Of a stretch of DNA of 60,962 bases, positions 15,663 to 44,000 are shown piece by piece. This DNA is from Chrysochromulina parva (taxonomy: Eukaryota > Haptophyta > Prymnesiales > Chrysochromulinaceae), in assembly GCA_002887195.1 (NCBI GenBank), contig PJAB01000024.1, positions 1-60,962 of the forward strand. The letters are read 5' to 3'. The translations under genes and the position numbers were made by a program. The number at the start of each line of letters is the position of its first letter. Position 1 is the stretch's first letter. The notes under the pieces were generated by a model, which saw only the letters and a program-made list of their open reading frames with translations, was not told where the DNA came from and did no database searches.

Positions 15663-18261
15663 TCACGTTTCATCTCGACGCAGCCCCGCCCCCCCCCTCG
15701 CAATCCACGAGCAACTCTTTGCATCCCCCTTCCTCGGTGCCGCTGTAGCTGCATCAGCCTCCGCCGCGTTGTGACGATCCCCACCGCCATGCTCGCCGCA
15801 CGTGTGCACAAACGGCGTCGGCGCTTTGCCGTCCCGCTTCTTCCGGGAGCCTCGCAGCCTGCGCAGCGCACCCTCGGTCCAGTGCGCGAGCAGCAGGCAG
15901 GGGAACGTGTAGCGCACCACACGGCTCGGCTTCTCGGACTTGAGCAGTTGCGTGTGGGTCGCCATTGGTGTGGTTCGCTCGACAGTGATGCCCGGCACCT
16001 CCTCCTGCACGTACAGCCAGATCTCGCTCCCCCGGCGCACCATCGAAGGCGCTGCCGGGTGGTCCATGGTGCGCTCCCCGTACCTGTGGGGAAGGGCAGG
16101 GCGCCGTGGTGAGCACATGCATGCAAGGCATGGGGGCCGGGTGGTCCATGGTGCGCTCCCCGTACAGACGACAGCTGAGCAGCGGCGTCACGCGCGTCCA
16201 GCGCACGCCGTCAACCGACGCGGCGATCGCCAGGCAAGCGCGCAGTCGGTGCACGAGCGGAAAGACGGCCACGAGCGAACCGTTATGGGACGGGTTGGCC
16301 TGTACCCCAAAGAAGTACACGTCACCCGTCTCGTCGTAGCCGTCAATGCGGATCGTCTCAAACGGCGCCCAGCTTGACGCCCAGCTCGACGAGGAGCCAC
16401 TTGCCTCGCTGGCTCTCAAGGTCCTCGGCCCGCCTGTGCCCGCCTCGATGGCCGGCTCAGCGGCCAGCTCGACGTTCGGCGCGCCCTCCGGTGCGAGCCC
16501 GAATGATGGGCGAGCTGTGAGGTCGCGACCTCGATAAGGGTCCCGAGAGCGCGTCACTTGCACATGGCGCCGTCCGCTCGCCGCAAGGTTTGCACGTGCG
16601 TACAGCAGGAACTCCCCCCCAAAGTGAACGAGCGACAGCCGCCCATCATACTCACACACGCCGCCCTCGTACAGGTACTTGGCAAAGTCGGCGCGCGCGC
16701 GCACATCGCGACGCTCGACGCAGCCCGGGTGCCGTCCGTCAAGGATCAAGTGCTTGTGCTGCCACTGCGTGGTCTCGGGCTCGTCCACACCTCCATAGGG
16801 GGAGAGCCACGGGTGGCTCTCGCCCACCGCACTGTCGGCCGGAGGACGGCCGTCAAAGCGCCAGGAGCGTCCGCGCACCATCCATAGCCCATTGCGCGGA
16901 GCATCGAAGCGGCTTGGGCTGAAGCCGAAGCGCTGCGTGAGCGCCGCCGCCGCCTTGGGCAGCAGCAGCGGGGAGTTGAAGGTGAACCGATCGCTCAGCT
17001 TATTGTGACGGCCGCCGACCGCAAACCATTCGCCGCTCTCCAGTCGCGTCAGGGCAAGATTGTGCGTCATCGAGGCGCCGAGCATCCTCACACGCGAGCT
17101 CACGTTCCGCAGATATTGCGCCCGCTGCGACATGGCAGCCCCCAGCTCGCCCTTGTGACCCCGCGCGCGGTGGACGACCTCATCGAAACTTAGATTGCGC
17201 CATGCCGTGTCGTCTGCACTCACTGCGACATTGGCCGCCGCCGCCGCCGCCGCTGCCGCCGCTGCCATGCGCCGTGCGCGCCGCGCGATGGGCAGCGCAA
17301 GGGGCTGGGAGCTCAGCCCCTTTGGGAGCGCCTGTGAGCGCAGCGTCAATTTTGGCATCACGAGGGCAGGGTCCCCGTCGAAGCTGAGCCCGTCAGCCGA
17401 GGTCAAGCCTGCGACAAACTCTTCCATGACCTCATCCTTGAAGAGAAGGCACACCTTCTCGATGCCGTCCTCATCGCACGCGAGCGCCGAGTAGTAGCGA
17501 AGGTGGCGCCGGAAGAGGTGGGTGAGCGTGCTGCGCGCGTGCGTGGCCTTGGTCCACAGCCAGGAGCTCGCGGCCACCCGAACATCCTGCTTGCGCACGG
17601 CACAGAGATGCGGCGCGCCACCAGCGGAGCTGGCGCTTCCTACGCCGAGCGCCAACCCGTTCCATCGCTCGAGCAGCGGCACCTGACGTGCGCACGCAGA
17701 CGCCTGCTCTGCGTACATCCCCATGCACAAAACCTCGTGCGCTGGCGCTGGCCCTGCTGTGCACTTGACGTTCGTCAGCGTGCCAGCCGTGCCAAGCGAC
17801 TGAAACCGCTCGGTCGCACACGGTTCGGTTAAGTTGAACATCCAGAAAGGCCCCGAGTAGAGCCCCGGTGGGCGAGAGGCACAGTCCACAGCTCGCATCG
17901 CGATGAGGCTTTGTGCGGATGCGTGCTGCAAGAGAACAGTCAGCTCTAGAAGTAGCGCAGTCCGAGCCGCGGCTGTGGGTGCCTCATGGCGTATGATGAT
18001 CGCGTCGCACACACCCAGGCTTTGCTCCACGTCTTTGGCGCGCACCGTATACGCTGGTGTCGCACGGAGAAAGCGGAGCCGCCGGTCGTCGGAGTGCCAT
18101 GCTTCGCCCTCAAAGGTGATGGCCGTGTAATGCTTGATGTGCTGCAGTGCTGCAAGAGTGGAACGTACCGACGCCAAACTTTGAGCATTGACCTCGCATA
18201 GGCGGCGCACATTGCGACTGCGCAGTGCCGCAACAAGCTCCTTCTCGAGTGCGTCAGACAT
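15663..18261 (-). CDS. GH43/GH32-like beta-propeller protein of unknown substrate
   Basis: Exons 16166-18261 and 15663-16083 give 838 residues, starting at ATG 18261. The last third has repeated blade-like motifs: HLILDGRHPGCVE, CEYDGRLSLVHFGGEFLLYARANLAA, then FETIRIDGYDETGDVYFFGVQ, AASVDGVRWTRVTPLL, and after the intron YGERTMDHPAAPSMVRRGSEIWLYVQEEVPGI. This pattern fits five-bladed propeller proteins of the GH43/GH32 superfamily and uncharacterised algal relatives. The N-terminal half has Cys-containing segments and no strong signal peptide. The 82-bp intron opens with 30 bp identical to the start of exon 2 (see separate entry); splicing as given restores ...RLYGERTMDHPAAPSMV. Activity is unproven and catalytic acids cannot be assigned by eye. 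Confidence 0.6.
16054..16165 (-). repeat. Introner-like intron with perfect 30-bp flanking duplication (family B)
   Basis: The intron is 16084-16165 on the minus strand. Its first 30 bases (16136-16165, beginning gtacggggag) are identical to the first 30 bases of the downstream exon (16054-16083). The remaining 52 bp contain the core tgcatgcatgtgctcacca followed by cggcgccctgcccttccccacag. The same core is found at 42793-42834 and, reversed, at 30230-30258. Confidence 0.8.
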
Positions 18262-18526
18262 GTGCTGGGCCTCACGAAAAAACTTCAGTCGGTCGAGGAC
18301 ACCGACTTGTGGAATGCATGCAAACGCGGACCAACGCGTCGTTTTTGCGATTGATGCAAGCAGCCTTTATCGTGCGCCCAAATCTGTGGGGTACTTAAGA
18401 CTTGGGACCTATTGGGACCTACCCTGTAACTTATAGCTCCATACTAAACAGACCTCCCGCAGGCTATATCCTGTTGAGATTTACTGGTAGTCTTGAGGGA
18501 CACCTCCCACGCACATGGCAGGCTTC
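18262..18526. other. Upstream region of the propeller gene
   Basis: This 265-bp spacer holds the promoter of the minus-strand propeller gene and the 3' end of the next minus-strand gene. An AT-richer stretch near 18340-18440 includes a duplicated cttgggacctattgggacct at 18400-18420. No defined site is recognised. Confidence 0.3.
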
Positions 18527-21147
18527 TCAGAATCTGCTCTGCGCAATTTGCGCAGCTCGGCGGCTCACGCGGCCCGCGCTGGACACGAGCAGGCCGGCGC
18601 CGGCGCTACGGGGTAGGCCCACGGTCTTCTTCATCGCCAGGTTGCGCGCGGCGGCGAGCAGCATCGCATTGGCCGCGAGGTGTGCATCTGCGGAGGGTGG
18701 ATGGCCGCCCGCACTGCGCACGCGATTGGCGGGCACGCGTCGTTCAAAGTCGCCCTCGAGCGACGCCTCGGAGAACTCGTCGTGGATGTATTGGATCGCA
18801 TAGCCGGTCCAAAACTCGACGTCATCATACCAGGAGTACGCGACAATGCCCGAGTGCCACGTGCGCGGCCCCGAATGCGCCTTCAAAGGCTCTTGTACCT
18901 CGACCAGGTCGCCGCGGACGAAGGCTCCTTCGGCAGGCGGCGCGTACAGCACCTCGGAAAGTGGCCGGCGCACTGGCGGCGAGCGCGGGTATGCACTGTT
19001 GGGCCTGGTCACATCGCCCAGCACGGCGCTCGGCGGGTGCGCGGGTGCTGGCAGCGGCTGCAGCGCTTCGCGAGACTCGTCGTCCTCTTCCACCCTGTCC
19101 TCGTCCTCCTCGTCCTCCTCGTCCTCCTCGTCCTCCTCGTCCTTCTCCTCCTCGTCTTCCTCGTCCTCGTCCTCGTCATCCTCGTCGTCCTCGTCCTCTG
19201 CCATTTGCGAAGCCATCGGAGTAAACGGCGGAGTTGTCACCACTCTGTCCTCGCCCTCATCGCCCTCCTCGTCCTCCTCGTCCTCCTCGTCCTCCTCCTC
19301 CTCCTCGTCTTCCTCGTCCTCGTCGTCCTCTGCCAGAGGCGAAGCCATCGCGGTAAACGGCGGAGTTGTCACGTGCGTTCGTTGCCAAGTTCGTTGCGCT
19401 AGACTTTGTGCTTGTGCATCTGAACTACCTCCTCCCCCTCCAGCACATTCCAAGTTGGGGGAAACTAGCGGAATCTCCTCGTCCTCGTCGTCCTCTGCTA
19501 GCGGGGTATAAAGAGTAAATAGAGGGATCTCCTCGTCCTCGTCGTCCTCTGCAAGCGGGGTATAAGCGCGTTGGAGCGGGCTCTCGACGTCACGGGTCCC
19601 CTCGCTGCTGCGTGCGACAGTATCAGCCCCCCCGGCGGTGCCAATGGCCGCCGCGATGGTTGCTGTGGCATCAGTGACCATGTTTCCTCCCCCTGTGACC
19701 GTGCTCCCCCCCACTCCCCCCGCGTCAGGCTGTTTCGGCCAGACTGCGGCGGGCATGGATTCGACTGCTCCACTGATAGACATCGCAGCGCTCGCTCCAC
19801 TGATAGACAGCGCAGCGTTCGCTTCACTGATAGGCAGCGCAGCGTTCGCTCCACTAATAGGTAGCGAAGCGTTCGCTTCCCTTGCCAAGCTCGGCAGCAG
19901 AGGCGCCGTATCGGTCACCTTCGTCTCCCGCGCCGTATCGGTCACCTCTCGGCGGGCCGGCTCGAGCGCTCCATGGCCGCCAAATACGGCGCCCTCATTG
20001 CCGGCGCTCCGCTCCTTGCGCCGATTTGGAGGCTCCGCTACTTGGAGGCGCCTGCTTGGAGGCTCGCCGCGGCTGCTGTCAGAGCGCTTGCGCTTCTTAC
20101 TCGCACTTACGCCGCGGTCGCCCCGGTACAACTCGCGAGCTGCCTGCTGATGCGCGGCGGAGCGCTGGCACGTGTGCGCCGTCTTTCGTTGGGGGAAGCG
20201 GCACGCGATGCACTGCGCCTCGGTCGTCTGCATCCTGCCGCCGCCGCCGCCGCCGCCGAAGCCGTTGGCGCCCTTCGCGTCGGCACCACGACCGTGAGCT
20301 GCCTGCTGATGCGCGGCGGAGCGCTGGCACGTGTGCGCCGTCTTTCGCTGGGGGAAGCGGCACGCGACGCACTCCGCCTCGGTCGTCTGCATCCTGCCGC
20401 CGCCGCCGCCGCCGCCGAAGCCGTCGGCGCCCTTAGCGTCGGCACCACGACCGTGAGCCCCCCTTTCCATAGCGGATGGCGCTCTCCCGTCCTCCAGACG
20501 CGCGTACCCATGCGTGCCCAATACGGCGCGCGTACGCATCACGGGCTGCTCGTCCCACCCGTCGGCCACCGCGATGCCCAGACTCTCGAAGTCCTCAATG
20601 CTCGAGAGCCTGAGCACTGCGGAGGAGCCGCACGCGGGCGGCGGCGTGCGGCGCGCCGCGCGCCAGCGTGCTTCGTTCAGGCAAGCCGGTGGCGCAAAGG
20701 ACTTGGCGCGTCCTATCCTATGATCAACTCGCACCTCAGCGCCGGCAGCAATCGGCTCAGTCGCCACGATCAGCACCACGCCGCCGCCTCTCTCGACGTC
20801 GGTGCCCGCGAAGGCGCTCGCGGTGAGAGGGATGTGCTCCGGCGAGGCCCACCTGCATGCAATGAGGGAGGCCATCAGCATGCAATCAGAGGCAATCGGA
20901 GGGATGTGCTCCGGCGAAGCCCACCGCTCGAGGCGAGCATTGGGAAGCGCAGAGTGGTTGACGTGGGCGCCGAGGTGGGCGCCGAGGTGGGGCATTGCTC
21001 CGAGGTGGGCGTCGAGGTGGGGCATGCCGCCGCCGCCACGTCCGTCGATGAAGCCGATCGCGGTACCTTGCCTGGCGTCGGTGTCCGCACCGCCGCCGCT
21101 GCTGCTCGAGGCAGCGCTGCTCGAAGCGCCCGCCGTAGCCAAGGGCA

Positions 21148-21216
<69 letters not shown>

Positions 21217-22348
21217 TGCTACTGTCAAAGAGCGTACAGATCGCTTGGCCGCGGATGAGCTGACTGCGTGCAAAGAGCCCTAGCCCTAGCTGCCCCCCGA
21301 GCTGTGAACGTGCACACCCTCCGAGCTGTGAACGTGCACATCCACCGAGCTGCACACCCCCCGCCGACGGCGCCACGAAGGCAAAGTGGTTCATCGGGCC
21401 GTGCGCAGCTGCGCTCAGTAAGGCCGCCGTCTCTCGAGCAGCGTCCTCCGCGAGGCGCTTGCGTGAGTGCAGCTTGGGTGGCGCAATCTCGGGAGCGAGC
21501 TCGAGTGAGAAGCCGCAGCCAGACCGCTCGCGCGCGCACCACCAGCGCCCGTAGCGGAAAGAAGCTGACAGGCCACACCCACACAGAGGCGCCCGCGCCG
21601 TGGGCGGCGGGTGCAGCTCGACGCCGCAGCCCATCGGCGCATCGTCCGCGCCGCTGCTGCTGCTGCCGCTGCTGCCGGCCGATACTTGCACGGCTGGGCG
21701 CGTGTCCGCCTCACACCACCACCGGCCACGTTCCCAGACGCACGGCCGCGGCGGCGTGCAGCCGCACTGCGGCGGCGGCGCGGGCGGGGGCTGCACGGCC
21801 GGCGTAGTCAGGCTGTGCAAGGTGGCCTGGTATCGAGGGCCGACTGACGTGTAATTGATCGCTTCGAAGCCGCCGTCGAGAAGGAAGGCGGCACTGTCCA
21901 CGCCGCCTCCGCCCACCGGCAGCGCATAGATCCGTAGGCCAGCGCCGCCAGCGAAATCATCGTCAAGACGAGGCTCTTCATTAGCCCGTTGGCGGTCCGA
22001 GGCAACGCCCGGCCAATGCGCGGCGCCGGGCCGAGGACCGCCTGGCCGAGGAATGGGCTTGTCAGGCCGGTGGATGCATGCCTTGCGCAGCTTGCCCGGA
22101 CCGCCATTTTTGGGCTTGTCGCGGCACGCCTCGCACCTGCCACACTCGAAAATTCTTCTGCTGCTCGGAGGTGCGTCGCCACTCACGCTCGCGTCGGCGC
22201 GGGCGGCGACCAGCACTGCACCGTTGGCTCCGATAGTGAGTGTGACGATGACACGCGCTGGTGGCACCGACGCGCTCGGCCTGGGTATTGCCGGCCGCTT
22301 GGACGGAGAGGACATGAAGGGCAGCCTCCTCTCGGTGTCGTCCTTCAT
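18527..22348 (-). CDS. CXXC zinc finger / SET domain / Tudor-like chromatin protein
   Basis: Exons 20925-22348 and 18527-20852 give 1249 residues (start ATG 22348; MSSPSK at 22315 is an alternative). Near the N-terminus CGRCEACRDKPKNGG followed by GKLRKAC fits a CXXC-type zinc finger that reads CpG DNA. Two Cys-rich WWC motifs (GRWWCEAD, YGRWWCARERSGCGF) may be GRF-like fingers. A divergent SET domain is indicated by HVNHSALPNA and VATEPIAAGAEVRVDHRIG. A 53-residue module with C-x2-C-x8-H-x-C is then present twice in tandem. Long acidic repeats follow (YTPLAEDDEDEEIPL, poly Glu/Asp), and a Tudor-like domain ends the protein (FVRGDLVEVQEPL, then WHSGIVAYSW). It is a probable histone lysine methyltransferase of Trithorax/plant type. 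A 24-residue polyproline run sits inside the SET region. Confidence 0.7.
20137..20454 (-). repeat. 159-bp tandem duplication encoding a Cys/His module
   Basis: 20137-20295 and 20296-20454 are two adjacent copies, 159 bp each (53 codons), nearly identical and in frame. Each encodes a Gly-rich linker followed by C-x2-C-x8-H-x-C (CIACRFPQRKTAHTCQRSAA), a likely zinc-binding unit. The high identity argues for a recent duplication. Confidence 0.85.
20827..20924 (-). repeat. 72-bp introner-like intron with 26-bp flanking duplication (family A)
   Basis: The intron is 20853-20924 on the minus strand. Its first 26 bases (20899-20924, gtgggcttcgccggagcac...) recur with one mismatch as the start of the next exon (20827-20852). 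The 46-bp filler contains gattgcctctgattgcatg and ctgatggcctccctcatt before gcatgcag. The intron is a multiple of three without stops, so retention would add 24 residues and duplicate WASPEHIP in the protein. Confidence 0.7.
21148..21213 (+). repeat. Perfect (GCG)22 trinucleotide tract
   Basis: 66 bp of uninterrupted GCG on the plus strand, encoding polyproline in the minus-strand SET-domain gene. Uninterrupted CGG/CCG tracts of this size are usually unstable and can form G-quadruplex or hairpin structures. Confidence 0.9.
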
Positions 22349-22556
22349 GAATCCCTTCACAGAGAACAAGCCTGCTCCCGGTGTGAAGGTTGATCCGATC
22401 AAGTGAGTGAGTCACTCACTCACTCATCAAGAGTGCGCAAATAACCGGGCTACTGTACACAACGACACTACTAACCACGCCAGAAAGGCTTCGCAGTATT
22501 GACTGAGAACGAAGCGAGGGCGTGTTTTGCTGCCATGCCTGAACACCAACCGAGGC
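22349..22556. other. Spacer with gtgagtgagtcactcac inverted repeat
   Basis: This 208-bp spacer lies between two minus-strand genes. At 22403-22426 the sequence gtgagtgagtcactcactcac forms an inverted repeat that could make a hairpin in RNA, close to the 5' end of the CXXC-SET gene. Its function is unknown. Confidence 0.4.
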
Positions 22557-28832: not shown

Positions 28833-28950
28833 ATTGAAACGGAGCAAACTGTCTTTTTAACACCGCCGACTTTCACAACACGTCTCCTCAAATACATGTA
28901 GCTCGCGACGCGTGGAAATTATTCTTCACACTACACTTGCAGACTTCGCT
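28833..28950. promoter_or_regulatory. Short divergent promoter
   Basis: Only 118 bp separate two divergent ATGs. The stretch is AT-richer than its surroundings (tctttttaacaccgccgact, gtggaaattattcttcac), as expected for a shared core promoter. Confidence 0.3.
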
Positions 28951-31464
28951 ATGACCATCCCAGGGGACCGACTTGCGCGAGACGTGATGCCCGAAGACGC
29001 TTCCTCGCCGTGCTTCCCTCACGGGCTCGAAGCCGCCCTGTGCGCGCATGTCGAGGCGGCCTACTACACCGCCTCGCGCTCGTGGACCTCACAGCCGGCT
29101 CATCCGCTCGATGCTAATCCGAGCCGCACCGAGGTGCTCGGAAATCCTCGCGCATGGCTGACAATCTGCTTGCAGAGCCAGCACAAGCCAAACATCAGCA
29201 AGGTGATCGCGTTCCTCTTCGGCGACGAGGCGATTGACGCCGTCGAAGCTGTCATGCGCGTCGCCGTCGGCCCTGCACCCACCGAAGGGCCGGACGACAA
29301 GGCCGCTGTGCCACCGCCGACAGCCAAGGTGAGCTTGCAGCTCGTCTTCCGGCAGTGCTGCTCGAATTACGCGACGCATGGGCGCGTCGCACGAGGCATC
29401 GTGCACGCGATCACGCGGCGCCTCTCCCTGCACAACGCCGCTCGAACCAAGGCCATCCTTTCACTGCTCGACGAGCCGCGACGGTCAAAGCTTGTCTTCC
29501 TCGAGCCGCTCCGTCGGCTCTGCGCGCTATCGGCGGCTTCAGGCCAGCCGGCGGCCGCGGCGGCTTCCGAGGTCGCGTGGCACGAGGCACTGCTGCAGGC
29601 CCTCGAGCTCGTGTCCACCTCCGCATCGCCCACGTGCCGATTCCGGCCGTCCGTGGTCTCCGAGCTCCTCTCAGAGGCGAGACACGTGGCGGTCGACATG
29701 GGACACGTGGCCATCTGGGGCAGCACCGCCGCCGCCGGCAGCAGCACCGCCGCCGCCGGCAGCACCACCGCCGACAGCAGCACCACCGCCGACGGTAGCA
29801 CCAATAGCGCGCAGCCGCTCCTCAACCAGGTGCTTCCGGTGCATGCATCTCTCGCACACCTGCTGCGCACCCGTCTCGCGCCACTCCTCGCCGCCGAGGA
29901 CGACGCGGGCGCGACCACGACGACGCCGCCATACGAGTGGGCGAGTGCAGCTGACTACCTTCCGAACCCAGCGGTGCATTGGGCGCTTTTGCGCACCGCC
30001 GAGGCCGCGCGTGCCCAAGGTGAGAACTTCAAGGCGGATCAAGGCGCGGGTGCTCTTTTGGCGGCCACACGTGGCGATTTGGGCGAGCTTGCGTGCGCAC
30101 TTGGCGCGCTGCTCCATGGCCCTGTGGGAAGTGCGCAGCTCCATGGCCCTGTGGCGGACGGCGCCGTAGCACTCGCAATACTCCAGATGCTCAGCCCCAC
30201 AGGCCGTCGAAGCGTCGCGATGGAAGACGGGGACGGGCGCCGTGGTGAGCACTTGCATACAGGCCGTCGATGCGTCGCGTTGGAAGACGAAGGCGCCGTG
30301 TTGGGCGCCCGTGTGGCCATCGAGCGCCTCGGCGCACCCGGATGGCGCGTGGCGTTGGATGCGGCGCTGGGGGCGGGCGTAGTGGCCGACGGAGGTGGCG
30401 GCGGCAATCCAGCCACGCTCTGTGTGCCCTTGCGGACCTCGTTTGACGCGCGGTCCGATGAGGCGGCAGCACTTTCCCATTGGTGGCCCGCTGTGCGGCT
30501 TTGGGTGCGCCAGCCCGGCCACTCTCGCTATTCGGGCGTGCTGGAGGGCTTGCTACGGCGCGCGGCCCGTCTGCACGCCCAGGGCGGCTGGCTAGACTCG
30601 GGTGGCCCTCGCAAACGGCGCATGCCTGAGATCATCAGCGGCGGCGGCGGCGGCAGCAGCAGCCACGCCGCGCTCGAGCTACGTGCGCCGCTCTTGCCTC
30701 TGCACGACGCGCGCAGGCTGGTGGACGCGTGCGCCCTGTACCTGCCTGCCGTGCTGCCCCTGCTGCGCCCGTCCGACGCGCTCGCGCTGCTCCACGCATA
30801 CGCGCTCGCCACGGCGCGCACCCCCGCCGCTCCGGGCGAGTCTACAGGGCCGCCCGAGATTGCCGAGATTGCGATCTCGAAGCCGCCCGAGATTGCCGAG
30901 ATTGCGATCTCGAAGCCGCCCGAGATTGCCGAGATTGCGATCTCGAAGCTCGTAGACGCAGCGAGCTCGTGGAGGAGGCCGCCTCAGGGTGGCGCGGAGC
31001 CCAAGCGGCCGCCGCTGCAGGCTGGCTGTGCCCTCGCTCTGCTGCCGCTCTGGTACGGCCGCAGCGCCGTGCCGGGCGCACTCTCTGAGCCCACCCTTGA
31101 TCACTCGTTCGCGCCGCTCGCGACACTCGACGGAGCTGGCGCGGACCTCGCTCTCTGCAGCCACTCAAGCTACCTGCTCGCGGCCCTCTACCTGCCGCCC
31201 GCTGCCCCGGTGGCACGCGCCACGCTGCTGCTCGAGCTCGCCGAGCAGTGGGCAGCGGAGGCGCGCTGGAGCTGCGACGTCGGCGCAGTAGCGGCCGCGC
31301 GCGTCCGCCGTGTTGCCGCGGCCCTCGCCAATGTGCGTGCGGCGCTCGACGCCGAGGTAGAAGGGCTCTTGCGCGAATCCGGCGCCACGAAGGTTGCGGA
31401 GCGGCTGCGGGGTGTAGGCGTGCACCTCTTCGGGGGCCCCTCGATGACACACGTGTATGTGTGA
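28951..31464 (+). CDS. Unknown helical repeat-like protein
   Basis: The open frame encodes 837 residues from ATG 28951. I do not recognise the family. It is mostly Ala/Leu-rich helix, compatible with a HEAT/armadillo-type scaffold (for example LVFLEPLRRLCALSAASG, LHDARRLVDACALYLPAVLP), without signal peptide or membrane helix. It carries several recent in-frame expansions: STAAAG/STTAD repeats near 29725-29800, LHGPV twice near 30112-30155, a 60-bp-period duplication at 30199-30289 and three copies of PPEIAEIAISK at 30849-30947. The duplication at 30199 may mark a very short intron (see repeat entry). The C-terminus ends in HLFGGPSMTHVYV. Confidence 0.5.
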   Translation: MTIPGDRLARDVMPEDASSPCFPHGLEAALCAHVEAAYYTASRSWTSQPAHPLDANPSRTEVLGNPRAWLTICLQSQHKPNISKVIAFLFGDEAIDAVEAVMRVAVGPAPTEGPDDKAAVPPPTAKVSLQLVFRQCCSNYATHGRVARGIVHAITRRLSLHNAARTKAILSLLDEPRRSKLVFLEPLRRLCALSAASGQPAAAAASEVAWHEALLQALELVSTSASPTCRFRPSVVSELLSEARHVAVDMGHVAIWGSTAAAGSSTAAAGSTTADSSTTADGSTNSAQPLLNQVLPVHASLAHLLRTRLAPLLAAEDDAGATTTTPPYEWASAADYLPNPAVHWALLRTAEAARAQGENFKADQGAGALLAATRGDLGELACALGALLHGPVGSAQLHGPVADGAVALAILQMLSPTGRRSVAMEDGDGRRGEHLHTGRRCVALEDEGAVLGARVAIERLGAPGWRVALDAALGAGVVADGGGGGNPATLCVPLRTSFDARSDEAAALSHWWPAVRLWVRQPGHSRYSGVLEGLLRRAARLHAQGGWLDSGGPRKRRMPEIISGGGGGSSSHAALELRAPLLPLHDARRLVDACALYLPAVLPLLRPSDALALLHAYALATARTPAAPGESTGPPEIAEIAISKPPEIAEIAISKPPEIAEIAISKLVDAASSWRRPPQGGAEPKRPPLQAGCALALLPLWYGRSAVPGALSEPTLDHSFAPLATLDGAGADLALCSHSSYLLAALYLPPAAPVARATLLLELAEQWAAEARWSCDVGAVAAARVRRVAAALANVRAALDAEVEGLLRESGATKVAERLRGVGVHLFGGPSMTHVYV
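30199..30292 (+). repeat. Reverse-orientation family-B insertion flanked by 31-bp duplication
   Basis: Copies at 30199-30229 and 30259-30289 match at 29 of 31 bases. The 29-bp filler 30230-30258 reads gggacgggcgccgtggtgagcacttgcat; its reverse complement matches the cores at 16084-16135 and 42793-42834. Two splice readings are possible, both in frame: a 48-bp GT-AG intron 30245-30292 using the filler's gtgagc as donor, or a 60-bp GC-AG intron 30203-30262. It may also be unspliced and coding. Confidence 0.55.
30849..30947 (+). repeat. 33-bp in-frame minisatellite (3 copies)
   Basis: Three tandem 33-bp units encode PPEIAEIAISK three times. The units are almost identical at DNA level, indicating recent expansion. 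Confidence 0.85.
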
Positions 31465-31823
31465 ATGTGAATGTGTGTCTGTGTGACTTCTAACACACGA
31501 TCAGAAATTAGGACCGTGGTGTGGAGGCGCGCGCCTCAGTCGTCAATGATCATTTATGTTCGGCGGCGCCCGAGGGCAGATGACGGTGTCCAATTCCGAC
31601 AAAACATTACCGAATTTTTCGCGTCGCAACTTCTATTAAACACATCATCCGTAACTAAAGGAAATGTCTGGAATGATCTCTGGAATGACATCTCGGAGAG
31701 TATCAAGGAGGTCATGAGATACGAATGACATCTTGATGACTTTTGGCAGCTCTAACTGCTGCACACTCATGACCTTCGCTTCCAAAAAGTGACCCCTTGC
31801 AGCGGGCCGACCGGGCGGAAGCG
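31465..31823. other. Intergenic region, upstream of the channel gene
   Basis: This 359-bp spacer is AT-richer than the coding DNA. It begins with a TG-rich stretch after the previous stop codon (gtgaatgtgaatgtgtgtct) and contains aatgatctctggaatgacat near 31671-31690. A cccttgcag at 31794-31802 could be a 3' splice site for an untranslated first exon of the channel gene. Confidence 0.35.
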
Positions 31824-35634: not shown

Positions 35635-36475
35635 TCGGCAGGTCGGCACACGAGGCGGTGCTCGTCTGCCTTCTCAGTCGCCACCACCACCATCGCTTCC
35701 TCGAGGCACTTGTCAGCCTCCATGAAGGGCCCGCCGCCGGGTGCACTCTGTAGCCGCCTCTGCGCTCGCCTCCGCCTGGCGCCATTCTGCCTCCATTGAT
35801 ATTTGTGCGCATATCGCTGCTCGTTCTCCGTCGATCTGCGTACGCATTGCCCCCGTGAGGGTGCCGTCTTATCGCATGCGCCGTTCATACTTGTACATAC
35901 GTCTTCTCGCATATGCCGTCTTCTCGCATGCACCGGTACCTGTCCAGCGCTTCGAGCGTGTAGCGTTGCACCTTGCACCCCCACACCGTGGGTTCCGTGC
36001 GGCGTGCGCCTTTGCGTTGTGTATGCCAGAGCGGAGTGCGCCGCCGGCGGCCTCGCCGCCTGCGCTTGGTATCGCATCAGATACAGTCACGCCTTGTTTA
36101 TTTCGTTGAGCTATTACCGTGCAAAACCGTGCACGGCCATGCCTCCGGGGAGCGAGTGCGACGGCTCCGGCGGGTACCCCGGCTCGTCACACAGCTGGCT
36201 AGGCCTAGTGGGTACGCGGAGGTTCCCGGAGGACAATCTCGATTTGCTTTAAAAATTTCAAGAGGAAAATTATTTTGGAAAATACAATTGTAACCAAATG
36301 TTGTTTGGGTCACGAAAGACGTCGGTGTATCCTCGACATGCTGCGATATGCAAGAACGGGACGACCGACATTTGATCGGAGAGGACCTGGAAAAACCCGA
36401 GCGCCCGAAAAGTGAAAAGGCGGGATTCCGTGATTCTCTTTCATCAATGTATTTCGCAGCAACGAAAAGACGAAT
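35635..36475. other. 841-bp intergenic region
   Basis: It lies between two plus-strand genes. Only short, unconvincing open frames occur on either strand. Repeats of ttctcgcatatgccgtcttctcgcatg type are seen near 35903-35930. The last ~250 bp are AT-richer and include taaaaatttcaagaggaaaa at 36250-36269, probably the promoter of the LON gene. Confidence 0.4.
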
Positions 36476-37432
36476 ATGACGCCGTCCACGGTGGTGATAT
36501 CAATGGCGATTGCATGGCGGCAGCCAACACGAAGCCAGCCATCGATATGCACCGTCGTGCGACGAGCGGACACGCCACGCATGAACGAGTTCGATCTGTC
36601 CGTACTCACGAAGCGTATAGAGACTCAAAAATCAAGCACCAGCATCCCAGCCATTGTAATGGCACCGAGCTGCTTCCTGCCTGGGCAGAAGATGCAGATG
36701 CACAAGGTGAGCGCCGAATTCGCGGCGCTGCTGCGCCGCCTGCAGGTCACCGAGCGGGCGGGCGGGCCGATTGAGACGTACACCATCGCCATCATGGTCC
36801 TTGTGCAAAACAAGCGGCCGCTGCCACTCGGGATCCAAGCGTCGGTCGCCTCTGTGGAGCAGCTCGAGAACGGCACCTGGGAGGCCGCTTTGCTTGCGAA
36901 GCGCATCATCCGCTTCATCGGGGCGGTCGACGACACCGACTATGAGCGAGGCGACCGCGCGGCCCAGCAGGGCAGCGAGCAGGATCGGAACCAACAAGCG
37001 CAAGGCTGGTTGATTGCACGCGTGACACCCGTTGACGTGAAGGCTCTGGACGAGCAGGAGCTGGTGCTTAATGGCGACACGTCCCGCGTGCTCGAGTTCT
37101 TGTCGCGCGAGCTCGATCCTCTGGTCGAGTGCTGGCTCGACCTCGTGCGCACCTCCGACGTGGTCCGACTTGCCAAATCTGGCGACGAGCTCGAGGCGCT
37201 CCTCGAGGAGCTCGGCAGTCTGCCCGGCGTGCACGACTACTCGGCACGCGCTCTGTGGGTGGGGCGGCTGCTGAACCCTGGGCCGATGCGTGTGGCTCAC
37301 GAGATGCGCTCACAGCTTCTGCAGGCCGACTCGGCGCTTGAACGCCTGTACATCGCCCGCGGCGCTCTGGTCGACAGCGTCCAACGGCTCAAAGCTTCCG
37401 AGGAGCACGGCACGCCACTCTTTGTGGACTGA
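36476..37432 (+). CDS. LON substrate-binding-domain protein
   Basis: 318 residues, one exon. The pattern IPAIVMAPSCFLPGQKMQMH, then TIAIMVLVQNKRPLPLGIQASVASVEQLENGTWEAALLAKRIIRFI is that of the N-terminal LON domain (conserved P-G near the start, V-x-x-V-E-x-L-x-x-G-x-W-x-x-x-x-x-G/A-x-x-R strand). A helical second half (~180-318) corresponds to the alpha part of LON domains. There is no AAA+ ATPase or protease part, so this is a stand-alone LON protein, related to bacterial YcaP/PUD-like or cereblon-type proteins, not a Lon protease. ATG 36476 gives a 35-residue leader that could target an organelle; MNEFDL at 36581 is an alternative start. Confidence 0.6.
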   Translation: MTPSTVVISMAIAWRQPTRSQPSICTVVRRADTPRMNEFDLSVLTKRIETQKSSTSIPAIVMAPSCFLPGQKMQMHKVSAEFAALLRRLQVTERAGGPIETYTIAIMVLVQNKRPLPLGIQASVASVEQLENGTWEAALLAKRIIRFIGAVDDTDYERGDRAAQQGSEQDRNQQAQGWLIARVTPVDVKALDEQELVLNGDTSRVLEFLSRELDPLVECWLDLVRTSDVVRLAKSGDELEALLEELGSLPGVHDYSARALWVGRLLNPGPMRVAHEMRSQLLQADSALERLYIARGALVDSVQRLKASEEHGTPLFVD

Positions 37433-38224
37433 TGCGCCGGCCTTGATTGGCAATGTCGGGGACTCGGCTCCACGTGCGCTGTGGACGGTTCCGGGACGTG
37501 TACATTGGGCGTGTGCTTTGGGAGACGATCATCGAGACGATCTGGGGCGCGTGTCGTGGCCTTGGGTGTCCAGCGCGAGCGGCGAGAGCAGTGGGGTCGC
37601 CCCGCAGGCGTCCGCGCGATCTCGCCCAGGAGATGCCTACTCGCGCGATCTTCCGATCTTCGAGAGCGGTGAACGCCCTTTGACTGCGTGACTCGCGCTC
37701 TCGAGAGATGGTGTAACATATCCTTCGCTATAGAGCTGTATATTCTACGATACGAATGGGAATGGGACTTGGCGACTGGGCGGACGATCGGTGGTCGATG
37801 CGAGCCGTGTTAAGCGTATTTCCGCATCCGGGGCGTCGGGAAGGGGTTTTCGGTTTACTAACCTGAAACCTCTAACGCGTAACGGCGAGTCGCTGACTGT
37901 CCATGTACCATCGAACTCTCCATTTTCGTAACATTTTCGACAGGGGTGATATTCGTATTTTCGACCACATGGTCCGACACTCTTCCTCATCACTGGGCCC
38001 ACGGCGGTCACTGGCGCGCGCGCAACTCTGCTCGCCACCTGTTCACGATGCCCTTTTGTACTATGTTGCGGTCATGATTGTCCAGTGGCACCAGCCTGCA
38101 CATCACTGATTCTGTGCTCTCCAGTCCGGTCGCGTGCACTGACAGCAGCTGTGTCCTCTTGTCCGTGCCCGTGCTCGGTTGGCGCGCGCCAACGCTGGCG
38201 CGCTGGGCGACCACGACGGTCGCC
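37433..38224. other. 792-bp convergent intergenic region
   Basis: It separates the 3' ends of the LON and borealin genes. No supported gene. The interval 37690-37960 is AT-richer. I see no repeat family or RNA structure that I can name. Confidence 0.4.
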
Positions 38225-39058
38225 TCACTGCTCGAGGCCTACATTCGCCTTGATGGCGGCCAGATGGCGCTCCACCTGCGCCTTGAGCACCTCGAGCTCG
38301 CTCAGGCCGAGCGTGAGCTCATTGCCGTTTCCGAGCGTGATCGTCGCGACGCCGCCGACGCGCGGGCCTACACCGGCCTTGGCTTTGATCGTGCCAGGCA
38401 CTGCGATGGGCGACCCGTTTGCTGTGAAGGCTAGCTCGCCCTCCTGCAGCGGCCGCGGAGCGCAATCAAAGCGCGGCGTGTATGGCACGGCAGTGGTGCC
38501 GGCAGCGGGCGTCGCGGCCACCGCACCTCGAGCTGTGCTGGCGCCCGCTGGCGTGGAGGCCACGGTGCCCATGCGCGCGCGCGTCTGGCGTGCGCCTGGC
38601 GTCGCGGAGATGCCCGGCATCGCAGCAGCCTCAGTGGCGCGCTTGCGCGGATTATTGACGACGGGCTTGGGCGCGGGCGCGGGCTTGGGCGCGACATTGG
38701 CCTTGCCGCTCGGTGCAAGCAACGCGGGCGGCGGCGGCATGAGCTTGAGCTGGCTGCTCGTCGCCTCCTTGATGGCTTTCTCAACGTCGCCGCCGTACAC
38801 CATGCAGAAGTCCCGCATCGACATCTTTTGGATGCAGGTGGGCAGCTTGAAGAGGATGTCAATTCTCACGGTGCTCTCCAGGTTATCGATCAGCTGCTCG
38901 ACGAGCTGGTTCATCTGCTTCGTCTTCTGCTCGAGCTCGATGTCGAGCTCCTGCAGCACCGTCTCAGGGCCGCCCATGCCGACCATGGCTGCGTCCTCGT
39001 CCTCGGCGATGGCGGCCGGGTGCAGGTCCTCGACGAACGCGGTGGTCGTCGTCGACAT
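38225..39058 (-). CDS. Borealin, chromosomal passenger complex subunit
   Basis: 277 residues, one exon, ATG 39058. The N-terminal helix (~37-85, ELDIELEQKTKQMNQLVEQL... with KLPTCIQKMSMRDF) matches the Nbl1/borealin N-terminal region that packs with INCENP and survivin. A basic Pro/Ala linker with TP sites (STP, ATP, TPGAR) follows, resembling CDK/Aurora target sites. The C-terminal domain has the borealin signature TPRFD (194-198), EGELAFTANGSPIA (~207-219) and ITLGNGNELTLGLSELEVLKAQV near the end, like the dimerisation domain of animal borealin. It would bring Aurora B to centromeres and the midzone. The gene is divergent from the p28-like gene with a 243-bp intergenic region that has cell-cycle-type motifs. 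Confidence 0.75.
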   Translation of the reverse strand: MSTTTTAFVEDLHPAAIAEDEDAAMVGMGGPETVLQELDIELEQKTKQMNQLVEQLIDNLESTVRIDILFKLPTCIQKMSMRDFCMVYGGDVEKAIKEATSSQLKLMPPPPALLAPSGKANVAPKPAPAPKPVVNNPRKRATEAAAMPGISATPGARQTRARMGTVASTPAGASTARGAVAATPAAGTTAVPYTPRFDCAPRPLQEGELAFTANGSPIAVPGTIKAKAGVGPRVGGVATITLGNGNELTLGLSELEVLKAQVERHLAAIKANVGLEQ

Positions 39059-39301
39059 CGAGCCGCGCAACCTGCGCGAGCGGTGGGGCGACGGGTGAGC
39101 GGTGAGAGCGACGGCAGCCAGGTCCGGTGCTGAGGCGCGTCTCACATTGGTTTTTTCAAAGTGACGGTTCAATTCACGCGCCAAAAGGTGTGTGGTGGGG
39201 GGCAGTAGTTCGCCGCGCGCGGCGACTCTGGGAGCATTGTTCTCAAAGTTGAGTGGACGTTCGCATTTCAGACGTCTTTCTTGGTCCAACAGTGTGCGGA
39301 C
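39059..39301 (-). promoter_or_regulatory. Divergent promoter with E2F-, CHR- and CCAAT-like motifs
   Basis: Read on the borealin strand, TTTTGGCGCG (39186 to 39177) matches the E2F consensus, TTTGAA (39160 to 39155) matches the CHR element and CCAAT lies at 39150 to 39146, all 88-128 bp before the borealin ATG. This order of sites is typical of cell-cycle promoters in animals and plants. Each motif is short, so chance occurrence is possible. Confidence 0.4.
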
Positions 39302-40855
39302 ATGACGCTTCTGCCGGCACTGGGTTCGCCGACCTCGGACGACGAGCCGGCCGCCGCTGCAGAGCCACCCCACATCTTCAAGAAGCCCACCTTTTCCGAT
39401 GCGCGCCTCGGTGCTTTGCAGCTGAAAACGCAGGGACTCAGGGCCTTCGGTGGGTTTGTAGCGTCGGCGCGCTCTGACACGGCCGCCCAGGCCGCTGCGA
39501 AGGACCCGGCTCCGCTACTACCGCCCCCTCCGCCCGCAGTCTTGCCCCGTCCGGGCTCGAGCCACGCCGAGGCGGCCCTGAGTGCACGGCTACTCCGTGG
39601 CGTCGGCAGCCATCAGCAGCAGCAGCCATGGGACTCGTGGTTGCAACCGTCACCACCGCAGACGCCGCTGCTGTCCCCTCGCGCCAGAGGCGGCGGCGGC
39701 GGCGGCGGTGCTGGCAGCGGCCCGCTGCCGGAGCCCAACTCGACGCGCTCGCCGCGCCGGCCGATCCCACCAGTGGGCTACGCGCGGCCGCCGACACGCG
39801 GCGACGTTCAGGGACTGTCTGACAAGCTTCGCACGGCCATCGAGCGCGGCGGCCGGCACACGGAGCTGGACACGGCGTGGCACACCACCTTCCTCGAGCT
39901 CGTACGCCAGGTCTACGTGCACTGCGCCGAGCGCGGCCAGCTGCTCGACGCGGTGCGCGTACACCTCGAGCAGGAGCTCAAGAGTGTGCGCACGCTCTGC
40001 GCGCAGCAGGCACGCGAGCTCGCGAAGCTGCGACGCGACGCGAGCGTGCTGCTCGGCGGCTCATCCAGCGGCGCGGGCGCGGGCGCCGTGAGCGCCGTCG
40101 ACGCGCGCGTGGCTGAGGAGCAGCGGATGACGATGCTCACCGACGCAGCTGGCCGGCTCGCGCCCGAATCGCGCGCCGTGTTGGTCACGCGCGTCGTGTC
40201 AGGCAGCGAGGAGGCGGGCAGCCGCGAAGCGCTCTTTGGGGCTACGCTCGACGCCTTGCCCGAGGCCGAGCGCCTCAATTTGCTCGGCACGGCGCTCGAG
40301 GCGCAGTCGGTCGGCAACCTGATGCGCGTGCTGGGCAAGGTACTCGAGAAGGTCGAGAAGTCGCGCCGGCTGCTGCTGCTCGGGCTGCTCACGGACTCGC
40401 TCGACGACGCCGCGAAGGCGAAGCACGCGCTCGAGGTCACCCAGCATCTCACGTCGGAGGCTCGGGCGGCCGTGGCCAAGAGCCTCTTCCACAACCTGCC
40501 CAAGCTCACGCGCCGGCCGGCGGTGGCCGAGCTGCTGAGCGGGCTGTCCAAGGGAGAGCGCATCGAGCTGACCTCGGACGTGCTCAGCAGCATCCCGCTC
40601 TCCGACCTCGTCGAGCTCACCACGAGGCGCTGCGACACGATGGACGGCTCGACGCGCATCGGTTTCGTCTCGGAGACGATGGGCACGATCTCGGCACGCG
40701 AGCGCAACCAGCTCGTCGAGGAGCTGCTCGTCAAGATGCCGGGCAGCGAGCGCGAGAAGCTGCTCGGAAACCTCTTCGGCATGCTCTCTAAGAGTGAGCG
40801 CGAGGAGCTGCAGACCCTATTGCAGAGGACGATGCGCGCGGGTGACAAGGAGTAG
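39302..40855 (+). CDS. Axonemal dynein light chain p28-like protein
   Basis: 517 residues, ATG 39302, one exon. The N-terminal ~160 residues are low complexity (Pro, Gly, Gln). The segment around 190-240, TAWHTTFLELVRQVYVHCAERGQLLDAVRVHLEQELKSVR, follows the p28/DNALI1 pattern (F-x-E-L-x-R-Q-V-x-x-x-C-A-E-R-G-x-L-L-x-x-V-R). p28 is a light chain of inner-arm dyneins in flagella. The remaining ~270 residues are helical repeats with SEREKLLGNLFGML-like units that p28 lacks. The protein is thus a p28-domain protein with an extra C-terminal helical array rather than p28 itself. Confidence 0.6.
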   Translation: MTLLPALGSPTSDDEPAAAAEPPHIFKKPTFSDARLGALQLKTQGLRAFGGFVASARSDTAAQAAAKDPAPLLPPPPPAVLPRPGSSHAEAALSARLLRGVGSHQQQQPWDSWLQPSPPQTPLLSPRARGGGGGGGAGSGPLPEPNSTRSPRRPIPPVGYARPPTRGDVQGLSDKLRTAIERGGRHTELDTAWHTTFLELVRQVYVHCAERGQLLDAVRVHLEQELKSVRTLCAQQARELAKLRRDASVLLGGSSSGAGAGAVSAVDARVAEEQRMTMLTDAAGRLAPESRAVLVTRVVSGSEEAGSREALFGATLDALPEAERLNLLGTALEAQSVGNLMRVLGKVLEKVEKSRRLLLLGLLTDSLDDAAKAKHALEVTQHLTSEARAAVAKSLFHNLPKLTRRPAVAELLSGLSKGERIELTSDVLSSIPLSDLVELTTRRCDTMDGSTRIGFVSETMGTISARERNQLVEELLVKMPGSEREKLLGNLFGMLSKSEREELQTLLQRTMRAGDKE

Positions 40856-41060
40856 GTTCTTGGCTTCTTGCTGGCACGCCCTAGCCGCAGAGCCGGATGC
40901 GCCGAGATGCCGCCGTCCTTGCGTTGTGTACACTTTGGCTTTGCCCCCTTCATGGTAGGATTTATGTAAATACCTTGCCCTCAGAGGAGCAAGCAATCAA
41001 GACACTCACAAAAAGATTCGTCAATTTGGAAAAGTTGGTGTGGCCCCGGCGTCTCCGCAC

Positions 41061-44000
41061 ATGCTGCTGTCTTCGCTGTTGCTCGCCGCCCTCGCAGCGC
41101 TGCCCCCATCGGATGGGCCATTGGCGCGCTTCCTACACGGCATCACCATCGGGCCCGTTACCATGGACCTCTCGCTGCCCGCACCGGTCGGGCACGCTGA
41201 CATCCATCTCGACGAGCTCATGTGCACCGATCTGACGATCGCGAAGCTGTCCACGTCGACCGCACCGCAGCCGCCGCTCGCGCTCTCGTTCGACATCGAG
41301 CTCGGGTACCTGAGCTGCCAGACAGCCCATGGCTCGACACTAAAGGTGATGCCGCTCGGCTACCCGTCGTGGGGCCCGGGCGTGATGCACATCACTCTCG
41401 GCAACACGGAGGGGTCCATGTCGGCCAAGGTAGCCACGACACTCACGCTGGACATCGACGGCGACGGGCTACCCGTCGCCGTGCACTTTGGCACCTCCGA
41501 CGTCAAGCTCGATGGCAGCATCACTATCACGGGCGAGCCGACCTTTGGACGCATCCTTCAACCCGTGATCAACGCACAGGTGGAACAGCTGGAGCAGGAA
41601 CTTCAGAAGAACCTGACGCACCTGCTCGAGGTGACGCTGTCTGAGCGGCTCACGCACGCGCTCTCCAACCTGAGCACCCACGTGCTGCGCCCGCTGCTCG
41701 AGGTGCCCACGGCTCCTCTGGCCGAGGGGCAGGTGGCGCACGAGGCGATCGTATGGAGAAATAGCTCCACCATCGAGCTGCTCGATGTGCTGCTCAACGA
41801 GGTCGTGGGCACGGACGGCCCTTTTGGTCTCAATGGGCTCGCAAAGCGGCTCACGGGCGGGAGCGGCGTCGCCGATCTCAGCGGCCCGCTCGCGCTCCCT
41901 CGCGTGCTCGCCCTCAATGTATCGAGTCTGGGCGCTCTGCAGATCGCTCTGCTGGACGCGCGCGTGGCGGGGCTCGATCAGTTGGAGCAATTTGAGCTGC
42001 TGACGCCCGGGGATGCGGCAGCCGGCGGCGCGCACTCGCTCGGGTTTGCTCTGGGTACGGCGAGCTTGGGCGTGCAGGCCCTCGCCAACTTCACCTTCGT
42101 GCTCGACGGCAGCGTACTCAATGGCAGTGCGCCCATCACGGCGCCACCGCTCACCGAGGCGCTTCATTTAGAGGCGGGCTTGGTCCAGGCGAGCGCGCTG
42201 GCGACCATCTTCGCCGCCATCAACGCGTCGCTCGACGTCGCTGGCGCGCTCGCAGAGCCTGGGTGCATCGCGGCCGCCGTGCTGAACGCGTCGGTGCGCG
42301 CACTGCAGCTGAATGCGAGCCTGAGCGCGCTCACTACGACGCTCACGCTGCCAGGCACGCTCGAGAAGAACCTGTCGAGCACCCTCAACCATCTCTTTGG
42401 GCTGTTTGAAGCGGTCGCCAACCCCATCCTTCCGCAGCTGCTCGCGGGCTTCTCGGCGGGCCCGCTCCGTGGCGGGCTGAATGACGAGCTGAGCGCTTGG
42501 CTCGATCAACGGAACGACACGTGCCCCCCGGCCCCGTCGCCGCCGCCGCCGCCGCCGCCGCCGCCCAGCTTCGCCGAGGCTATCGACTGGACCACCGTGG
42601 GTGCGCTGGTGCGGCTGGATGAGCTCGTCGAGGAGCACGGCGCTCAGGCCATCAACGTGCTCATCACGGCGCTCTTGGGCAACAGTTCGACTTGGGTCCT
42701 TGGGCGGCCGTTGAACTTGACCATCGACGCGAGTGGCACGCCGCTGGGTACCGTACGTGACGCGCCTGGAGCAGACGCCGTGCACCTGTCAGTACTGCAT
42801 GCACGTGCTCACCATGGCGCCCCCCTCCCCACAGGTGACGCTCACGGTGCTCAGCGCGAGCGCGGATGGGCTGTCGACCGTTGAGAATGTGACGCTGCTC
42901 GAGCCGCTCAACGGCCCACTGCTGCGCTCTGGGATCTCGTCCGCGGGGCTGCGCGCCGCGACACGCGTGCGGCTGGACACTGACGCGCCTTGGCTTGCGG
43001 CGGGCGTCGGCGGGCTCGAGATGGCGATCTCGATCGAGCTCGCGCAGCTGGCCATCTCGAGCACGGCGCTGCTGGCAGTCAACCGCTCGGGCTGGGGCGA
43101 TCTGCAGCTGCAGCAGGCACTCAACGGCAGCTGCCTCAACCGGCAGTTGCTCGCCATGCCCTCGCTCTCCGACCTGCAGATGGATCTGGAGTCGATCTCC
43201 CTCGGCTTGACCGGTGACAATTGGGGCTACGGGCCGCCTCAGCCGGTGCAGTTGCCGAGCCGTGCGTTCGCGCTGCCGCCGAACCTCGTGCCCCCACTGC
43301 TCCGCCGTTTCGTCAACCCGCTGCTCGCACAACTCACTGCGTGGCTGCTCGGCACTTCGGACGTGTGCGTCACGCCGCCGCCGTATGCGCGCGGCTCAGC
43401 GCTCATCGACTGGCGTGAGAGCGCGCTGATGCAGGCGCTGCACGGCGTGGTCGACTCGACGGGCGCGCGCCTGAATGGGCTGATTGCGAATTGGACTAAC
43501 CAGACGGGCGCCCTAGAGCTCAATCGGTCGCTCCAGCTCAACATTTACGACGTCAAGCTCGGCGAGATTGGGATCGAGATTGACGAGATCCACATGGGGG
43601 GCCTCGACGGCCTCTTCAACGTGACCATCGCGCAGGCCGACCCGATCGACCCGATCCGGCTGAACAATGAGCTGGGCGTCGGCCAGGCGCGCCACCACAG
43701 CAGCCTCGACGACGAATTTGGCGAGGACGCGCGGCTGCCTTTGACCCTCGGGATGCGCCTGCAGCTGACCATCGACGGGCAACCCCACACTTACAGCGCG
43801 AGTGCGAAATTGCTCGGGGCGCTCCTGCAGCTAGACACAGAGCTGGGCGTCGACCTGGGCGCTTTGGGCGAGCTGCCGCTCCGCACGCTCGCCTCCCACC
43901 CGGCGTGTGCGCTCGTGCTCCCGCTCAACAACCTCTCGCTCACACCGACTTCGGGGTTGTACCTGCTCAATGAGCTCAATGGCGAGGCCGACCTTGAGCT

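What the first reader, a model, noticed from the sequence alone, without database searches (positions are those of the whole stretch)
16084..42834. One filler core in three unrelated genes, in both orientations (family B)
The core tgcatgca-n-gtgctcacca followed by a/ t-ggcgccc occurs at 16084-16135 (sense), 42793-42834 (sense, intron also 82 bp) and 30230-30258 (antisense, flanked by a 31-bp duplication, 29/31 identical). Sense copies provide ccccacag as acceptor; the antisense copy provides a ggtgagc donor. This is the pattern of a mobile sequence that carries splice signals usable in either direction.
Basis: partly seen in the sequence, partly recalled or inferred. Interest (0 to 1): 0.92.

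Follow-up and report, generated by a model that had tools for sequence, protein, structure and literature searches.

The report
Introns spreading with borrowed exon scraps
A short DNA sequence has copied itself into well over a thousand places in an unidentified single-celled eukaryote, often making a new intron by duplicating a stretch of the host gene beside it, and in two traced cases it carried a scrap of another host gene along, which bears on how genomes gain introns.

Summary
The core is at all three window places and at 1,720 or more places genome-wide (45 Mb, <=3 mismatches; reversed control 1). It is an introner family: mobile DNA that makes introns.

Two window copies are 82-bp introns (16084-16165 minus; 42753-42834 plus) whose removal keeps the reading frame. 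The 30230 copy is antisense with a 31-bp duplication (29/31) but adds 60 bp, 20 in-frame codons; seamless splicing is impossible, so 'usable in either direction' is not supported.

Unusual: (1) duplications up to 44 bp, 50 of 51 scored ones over 9 bp (3-9 bp in earlier introners); (2) duplication and insert lengths compensate, total near 76 bp; (3) one family takes the acceptor, the donor or neither from the element; (4) a second family (A) shares the layout; (5) two of seven tested inserts carry sequence native to another gene's exon, beside that gene's own copy of the intron.

Best reading: microhomology-guided template switching copies part of a parental intron between two overlapping copies of the new target; selection keeps spliceable products. 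Identity near certain; mechanism about 50%.

The parts
16084..16165 (-). Type I introner intron, 82 bp: 30-bp target copy (16136-16165, supplies the GT donor) plus 52-bp insert (16084-16135, core at 16100-16122, CCCCACAG acceptor)
   Evidence: spliced frame ...PLLSCRL|YGERTMDHPA... matches relatives
16054..16083 (-). Second copy of the 30-bp duplicated target (downstream exon), 30/30 identical
15754..18366 (-). Stop-to-stop ORF of the host gene of the 16084 copy; no Pfam family at E<=0.01 in the unspliced reading, homologues found with part of the spliced protein
30199..30289 (.). Antisense core copy: duplication 30199-30229 / 30259-30289 (29/31) around a 29-bp insert (30230-30258); period 60 bp = 20 codons in frame
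28981..31461 (+). Coding segment holding the antisense copy, no stop codon across it; local coding signal near the copy is weak
42753..42834 (+). Phase-0 introner intron, 82 bp, core 42799-42821, acceptor CCCCACAG; short duplication GTGACGC (42757-42763 / 42835-42841); a 78-bp reading breaks the frame
40959..42752 (+). Upstream exon of the 42753 intron
42835..46008 (+). Downstream exon; the ORF holding it (42721-46035) has a PqiA match, E 4.6e-11
59044..59198 (+). Family A introner-like introns in tandem (78 + 77 bp), same target-insert-target layout, acceptor CCTCCCTCATCAG
20853..20924 (-). Family A-like intron, 72 bp, 26-bp duplication (score 23), acceptor TTGCATGCAG

Best explanation
This is an introner family (called B). 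Most copies have the layout T-C-T. T is a stretch of the host gene, up to 44 bp, present twice. C is an insert holding a conserved block (GCATGCAnGTGCTCACCACGGCGCCC, with a likely branch site CTCAC), a variable spacer and TCCCCACAG. If the spliceosome uses equivalent positions in or beside the two T copies, T+C is removed and the original coding sequence is restored: donor from T and acceptor from C (type I), donor from C and acceptor from T (type II), or both from T (type III, one locus). SHOWN: family size, layout, frame restoration, length compensation, and sequence of another gene's exon in two inserts. INFERRED: copying by template switching. A polymerase on the target jumps at a few matching bases into a parental intron, copies its 3' part, and jumps back at the AG|GT motif a little upstream of where it left, so the stretch in between (T) is copied twice. 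Selection then keeps orientations and total lengths that splice. Whether the template is DNA (break or replication repair) or RNA (reverse transcription) is open.
For: 1,720 core matches against 1 in control. 70 of 115 distinct copies carry an acceptor; 51 of these have a duplicate scoring >=9, 50 of 51 longer than 9 bp, 41 of 51 beginning with GT, 22 of 51 perfect. For the 48 introns <=100 bp, T and C lengths correlate at -0.62 and the total is 76.2 +/- 9.2 bp against an sd of 14.4 +/- 1.0 when shuffled (10,000 shuffles, fraction as tight 0.0000). Type II: 6 of 6 hand-picked copies sense and in frame, two of them with negative coding scores. No target consensus at the far end of T in 42 copies. 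Passenger 1: the 5' part of the L003 intron matches exon and T of a gene at C1068 that has its own B intron; L003's flanks look unrelated; CTGC and CAGGTGA are shared at the junctions. Passenger 2: the L035 intron, with sequence native to its own exon, lies inside an intron of another gene at C2143, 99/107 identical, AGCGGTACGTCG common to both sites. In the same two searches the ten 3-mismatch hits and one 2-mismatch hit have no core beside them. 12 of 14 homologues read through the 16084 junction, among them P0086, 99% identical over 43% of the query.
Against: Only 2 of 7 tested inserts gave a passenger; L001, L028 and L048 hit only themselves, L031 and L041 were inconclusive. 19 of 70 acceptor-bearing copies have no duplicate above the cut-off (scores 2-7), and 10 of 51 scored duplicates do not begin with GT. 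The length constraint may be selection on intron length alone. In passenger cases a B intron could have existed already and been overwritten by ectopic gene conversion. Microhomology was read by eye in two events, with no statistic. Seven of 27 confident sense copies fail the frame test. No RNA data; splicing is inferred from frame and homology.
Confidence: 0.55

Rival explanations
1. Capture at staggered breaks: breaks with long overhangs are filled in (making T) and intron-derived fragments of DNA or RNA are joined in by end joining, as proposed for Daphnia neointrons; selection picks spliceable products.
For: Variable T, no target consensus, two different families with one layout, core-only inserts in two copies that seem not to splice. 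Daphnia precedent (passages of PMC4202315).
Against: Daphnia exon-end repeats are 4-12 bp and the sources mostly unknown; here one core recurs more than a thousand times. Does not by itself explain the 9-12 nt common to donor and target in the C2143 event.
Confidence: 0.2
2. Target-primed reverse transcription of (excised) intron RNA by a LINE-type enzyme: fixed 3' end, 5' truncation, variable duplication.
For: Type I inserts end at the intron 3' end and are ragged at 5'; reverse-transcriptase domains are present, 5 RVT_1 matches; sense orientation.
Against: Type II copies keep the 5' end and lose the 3' end; passenger 2 carries a whole intron with shared flanking bases; no nick-site consensus.
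Confidence: 0.12
3. Conventional non-autonomous DNA transposon (MITE-like introner) with unusually long target duplications.
For: Most known introner families outside ascomycetes carry a DNA-transposon signature (passages of PMC9860276); large family with many perfect duplicates.
Against: No fixed 5' end and no terminal inverted repeat visible in 67 copies stacked on the core; scored T varies from 9 to 44 bp, whereas transposases usually give fixed lengths (general knowledge); passengers.
Confidence: 0.08
4. Passengers come from ectopic gene conversion between introns that already existed, not from intron gain (compatible with any of the other mechanisms for the gain itself).
For: Both partners carry the shared core, which could seed conversion; at C2143 an intron array already existed.
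Against: At L003 the 5' junction has only about 4 matching bases.
Confidence: 0.2

Closest known systems
Introners / introner elements (Micromonas, Aureococcus, dinoflagellates and others; PMC9860276: abstract, passages and section 9 read)
   Same: Repeated introns at many positions, made by insertion into exons; donor recruited from the duplicated target and acceptor carried by the element is a reported arrangement; usually no change of mRNA length; enriched in genes.
   Different: Duplications named there are 3-9 bp in previously characterised families (I did not see lengths for all its families) and 3-5 nt in Amoebophrya; here 50 of 51 scored ones exceed 9 bp and vary within one family. No fixed 5' end or inverted repeat seen, three splice-site modes in one family, length compensation, parental-exon passengers.
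Daphnia pulex neointrons (PMC4202315, passages read)
   Same: New introns with direct repeats, ascribed to staggered-break repair.
   Different: Repeats shared with the adjacent exon 4-12 bp; source of most new introns unknown there.
Intron gain by tandem exon duplication (Rogers model; potato RdRp case, PMC4974935, passages read)
   Same: A duplicated exon segment supplies splice sites; type III fits this arithmetic. In the potato case the branch site, pyrimidine tract and acceptor came with a duplicated intron end.
   Different: Single cases with local source sequence; here a dispersed repeat lies between the duplicates.
Micromonas introners explained by reverse splicing (PMC3879977, passages read)
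   Same: Sense orientation; intron-derived source.
   Different: Simple reverse splicing makes no target duplication (inference); here 89 of 115 copies show a flanking repeat.
Hypoxylaceae sister stwintrons (PMC8469720, abstract and passages read)
   Same: Proliferating introns for which break repair by end joining is proposed; functional only on the coding strand.
   Different: 45-55-nt terminal inverted repeats and no flanking duplications there; here the reverse.

Membership tests
Introners | Highly similar introns at many unrelated positions in one genome | tested here: met
   1,720 core matches against 1 control; frame-restoring introns in many loci
Introners | Intron created de novo by insertion into an exon, coding sequence restored | tested here: met
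   Frame kept in 28 of 41 sense type I copies and 6 of 6 hand-picked type II copies; 12 of 14 homologues read through the 16084 junction
Introners | Splicing seen in RNA | not testable with these tools
   No transcript reads held
DNA-transposon (MITE) introners | Target duplication of fixed short length (3-9 bp) | tested here: not met
   50 of 51 scored duplicates exceed 9 bp, variable; 19 further copies below the cut-off are unresolved
DNA-transposon (MITE) introners | Terminal inverted repeats | tested here: not met
   By inspection: no conserved 5' terminus beyond GCATGCA in 67 copies, and the two ends are not inverted repeats of each other; no dedicated search was run
Staggered-break neointrons (Daphnia type) | Direct repeats flanking an insert that is not a repeat family | tested here: not met
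   Direct repeats yes, but the insert is one repeated family
LINE/SINE-type retroelement | Fixed 3' end with 5' truncation | tested here: inconclusive
   True of type I (where the 3' end was also used to select copies), violated by type II

The most novel reading that the evidence does not exclude
Introns in this organism spread by serial microhomology-guided template switching between genes: each new intron is a patchwork of the 3' part of its parent, scraps of its parents' exons and a duplicated piece of its new host, so the element has no fixed 5' end and descent can be read from the scraps. Two different intron families use the same route, so it would be a property of the cell rather than of one transposon.
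Probability: 0.4. Interest if true: 0.9.

Novelty: new variant of a known kind. Interest (0 to 1): 0.77.

Why it matters
How introners move is an open question; proposals include DNA transposition, reverse splicing and break repair. Sequence from a previous host exon left inside a daughter intron gives direct parent-to-daughter tracing, which turns the question into one that a genome-wide census can answer. [quoted passage not shown]

Tried and rejected
Splicing of the antisense window copy: rejected, no AG|GT in its duplication on either strand, and the insertion is in frame. RNA structure of the core: none beyond chance, z 0.05; no Rfam match at gathering threshold in the window. Local origin of the 29 insert 5' segments of 12 nt or more: mostly no better than shuffles; clear exceptions are tandem copies and a 15-nt match at L020. 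Passengers for L048, L028, L001: only self hits; L031: two 3-mismatch hits (one control hit), judged coincidence after reading them; L041: six places (itself included) against seven in control, best one read, not counted. General GT..AG-plus-duplication scan: 88 hits, 30 with core, but 16 other dinucleotide pairs give 3-121, so the count proves nothing; family A rests on the sequences seen. A first version of that scan had a filter error and found nothing in the window. Species identity: no match to an 18S end motif; a serine carboxypeptidase matched a metagenomic protein at 100% and named algae at about 46%; left open. Sharing of 5' segments among held copies is mostly within tandem arrays or among full-length 5' ends. 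Core invariance is inflated because most loci were seeded by exact core matches, and the acceptor block by the search for it.
Full report
What was checked. The window is contig C24 of a 45.07-Mb assembly in 2,199 contigs, GC 0.59-0.73 per 2-kb step. It encodes matches to serine carboxypeptidase, borealin N-terminus and axonemal dynein light chain, so I take it for a flagellated eukaryote (inference). An 18S end motif was not found. The carboxypeptidase matches a metagenomic protein at 100% and named algae at about 46%, so the species stays unidentified.

The core. Three matches in the window where 0.02 are expected; 856 + 864 in the genome at up to three mismatches, reversed control 0 + 1, a lower bound by the tool's own note. 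I read 115 distinct copies in the fetched loci and the window. Most fetched loci were chosen because they hold an exact core, so the invariance of the core is inflated. Positions not used for choosing still show a sharp edge: G and C before ATGCA in 65 and 67 of 67 acceptor-bearing copies at least 150 bp apart, and 0.21 bit one base further out.

Anatomy. 70 of 115 copies have an acceptor within one mismatch of CCCCACAG in the 50 nt after the core; in 51 of these the sequence after the acceptor duplicates (score >=9) a stretch before the core, which begins with GT in 41, GC in 3 and neither in 7. Scored duplicates are 9-44 bp, one tandem case 92; 50 of 51 exceed 9 bp and 22 are perfect. The lower end is set by the cut-off: 19 of the 70 score 2-7, among them the window copy at 42753. 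Repeat scores of 11 or more occur in 89 of 115 copies and in 9.3% of 300 mismatched flank pairs. The spacer between core and acceptor takes 62 forms in 67 copies. Tandem arrays of the unit occur in L004, L005, L007, L031, L032, L033, L036, L037 and L043.

Introns. A codon-usage model trained on long ORFs puts 41 of 51 copies sense to the better-scoring strand and 10 antisense; in 28 of the 41 the predicted exact splice keeps the frame. In the 31 copies with a clear strand difference, 27 are sense, 4 antisense, and 20 of 27 keep the frame (1/3 expected, P 1.8e-5). Seven of the 27 do not, and tandem members are not independent. A stricter test on 84 copies (repeat score >=11, spacing <=130 bp) gives 34 sense, 0 antisense, 50 undecided. 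Six copies use the reverse arrangement, donor from the element and acceptor from the duplicate; all six are sense and in frame, but they were picked by eye and two have negative coding scores. One locus (L034) seems to take both sites from the duplicate (by eye). All three types fit one rule: equivalent positions in or beside the two T copies are spliced, so the intron is always T plus C.

Length. In the 48 type I introns of up to 100 bp, T is 23.2 +/- 8.7, C 53.0 +/- 11.5 and the total 76.2 +/- 9.2 bp; shuffling partners 10,000 times gives a total sd of 14.4 +/- 1.0, with a fraction of 0.0000 as tight. Selection for a spliceable length is sufficient to explain this.

The window copies. 16084-16165 (minus): perfect 30-bp duplicate, spliced protein ...PLLSCRL|YGERTMDHPA...; 12 of 14 homologues run through the junction without insertion, for example P0080 (66%). 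One of them, P0086, is 99% identical over 43% of the query: an empty allele or a spliced transcript of the same or a very close species, not resolved. P0092, 80% identical over 29% of the query, ends exactly at the junction, which fits an intron there in a relative (inference). 42753-42834 (plus): 82 bp, phase 0, frame kept; the alternative of 78 bp breaks it. 30199-30289: antisense, 31-bp duplicate, 60-bp period, open frame; no AG|GT in the duplicate, so I read it as an exonic insertion of 20 codons. The local coding signal is weak on both strands.

Passengers. In 29 of 51 type I copies 12 nt or more lie between T and the ATGCA of the core, mostly without likeness to the usual 5' sequence. 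I searched seven of these segments in the genome. L003: seven places (control 0), of which one is itself and one, with two mismatches, is the exon and target duplicate of a gene at C1068 that carries its own B intron; I read that gene as Sec1-like from its translation (recalled, not tested). The flanks of L003 do not resemble it. L035: eight places (control 3), of which one is itself and one, with one mismatch, lies in an intron of another gene at C2143 and is part of a 99/107 match to the L035 intron, including sequence native to the L035 exon; both sites hold AGCGGTACGTCG. The remaining hits of these two searches, ten with three mismatches and one with two, have no core beside them, so only the two closest hits sit at B introns. 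In both, direction follows from the passenger being exon in one gene and intron only in the other. L048, L028 and L001 hit only themselves; L031 and L041 were inconclusive. So 2 of 7.

Mechanism. Two jumps guided by a few shared bases, out of and back to the target, would give T-C-T, a ragged 5' end, an AG|GT-anchored 3' end and passengers. In the L003 event the shared bases are CTGC and CAGGTGA, in the C2143 event AGCGGTACGTCG and GTACGTCG (read by eye; no statistic). DNA repair and reverse transcription both remain possible. Ectopic conversion between existing introns remains a rival for the passengers.

Spread. Among the 100 exact-core sites listed (a capped list), 11 pairs lie 130-1000 bp apart, 9 of 11 in the same orientation, some of them array members, and 6 pairs lie within 130 bp. 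There was no matched random control; at this density I would expect well under one pair (rough estimate).

Comparison. Introner duplications named in PMC9860276 are 3-9 bp for previously characterised families, and 49 of 130 assessable families show duplications (passages; I did not see lengths for all). Amoebophrya: 3-5 nt (PMC7789003, passages). Daphnia neointrons: 4-12 bp (PMC4202315, passages). A hand survey of 213 introns of all classes found repeats of 4-30 bp, mean 11.4, so long repeats at introns are not unheard of (PMC11782384, abstract and passages). Fungal stwintrons lack flanking duplications (PMC8469720, abstract and passages). Searches for introner with microhomology (3 papers), with tandem duplication and intron gain (6 papers), and for two of five terms including template switching and reverse splicing (312 papers, 15 listed) showed no title or abstract start that reports parental-exon passengers (listings of open-access papers only). 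The arrangement acceptor-from-element and donor-from-target is already known for introners. I therefore call it a new variant of a known kind.

Noticed in passing
L051:4250-4554 (IMG/VR contig 3300027760_000958): A contig filed as viral, with phage-like sequence in its first 4.2 kb (read by eye), ends in a B core with acceptor beside another target-insert-target structure: chimeric assembly or transfer, not resolved.
   Followed up: partly
L024:1377-1623; L036 minus 4676: Sub-family whose acceptor end is CTAATTAG instead of CCCCACAG.
   Followed up: no
L034 minus 7014 and 7708: Two copies sharing 23 nt of upstream sequence; at one, both splice sites seem to come from the duplicate.
   Followed up: partly
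G000:C2143:2150-2541: Array of four family A units in one intron, closed by a family B unit that supplies the acceptor.
   Followed up: partly
window 30849-30949: Three perfect tandem copies of a 33-bp unit in the host ORF of the antisense copy.
   Followed up: no
window 20134-20451: Two tandem copies of a 159-bp unit, 96% identical.
   Followed up: no
genome G000: Five RVT_1 reverse-transcriptase matches were found (a lower bound by the tool's note), four of them in frames without stops.
   Followed up: no
window 57790-57846: 10-bp period repeat of TTGATTGCCC type, similar in flavour to family A intron sequence.
   Followed up: no
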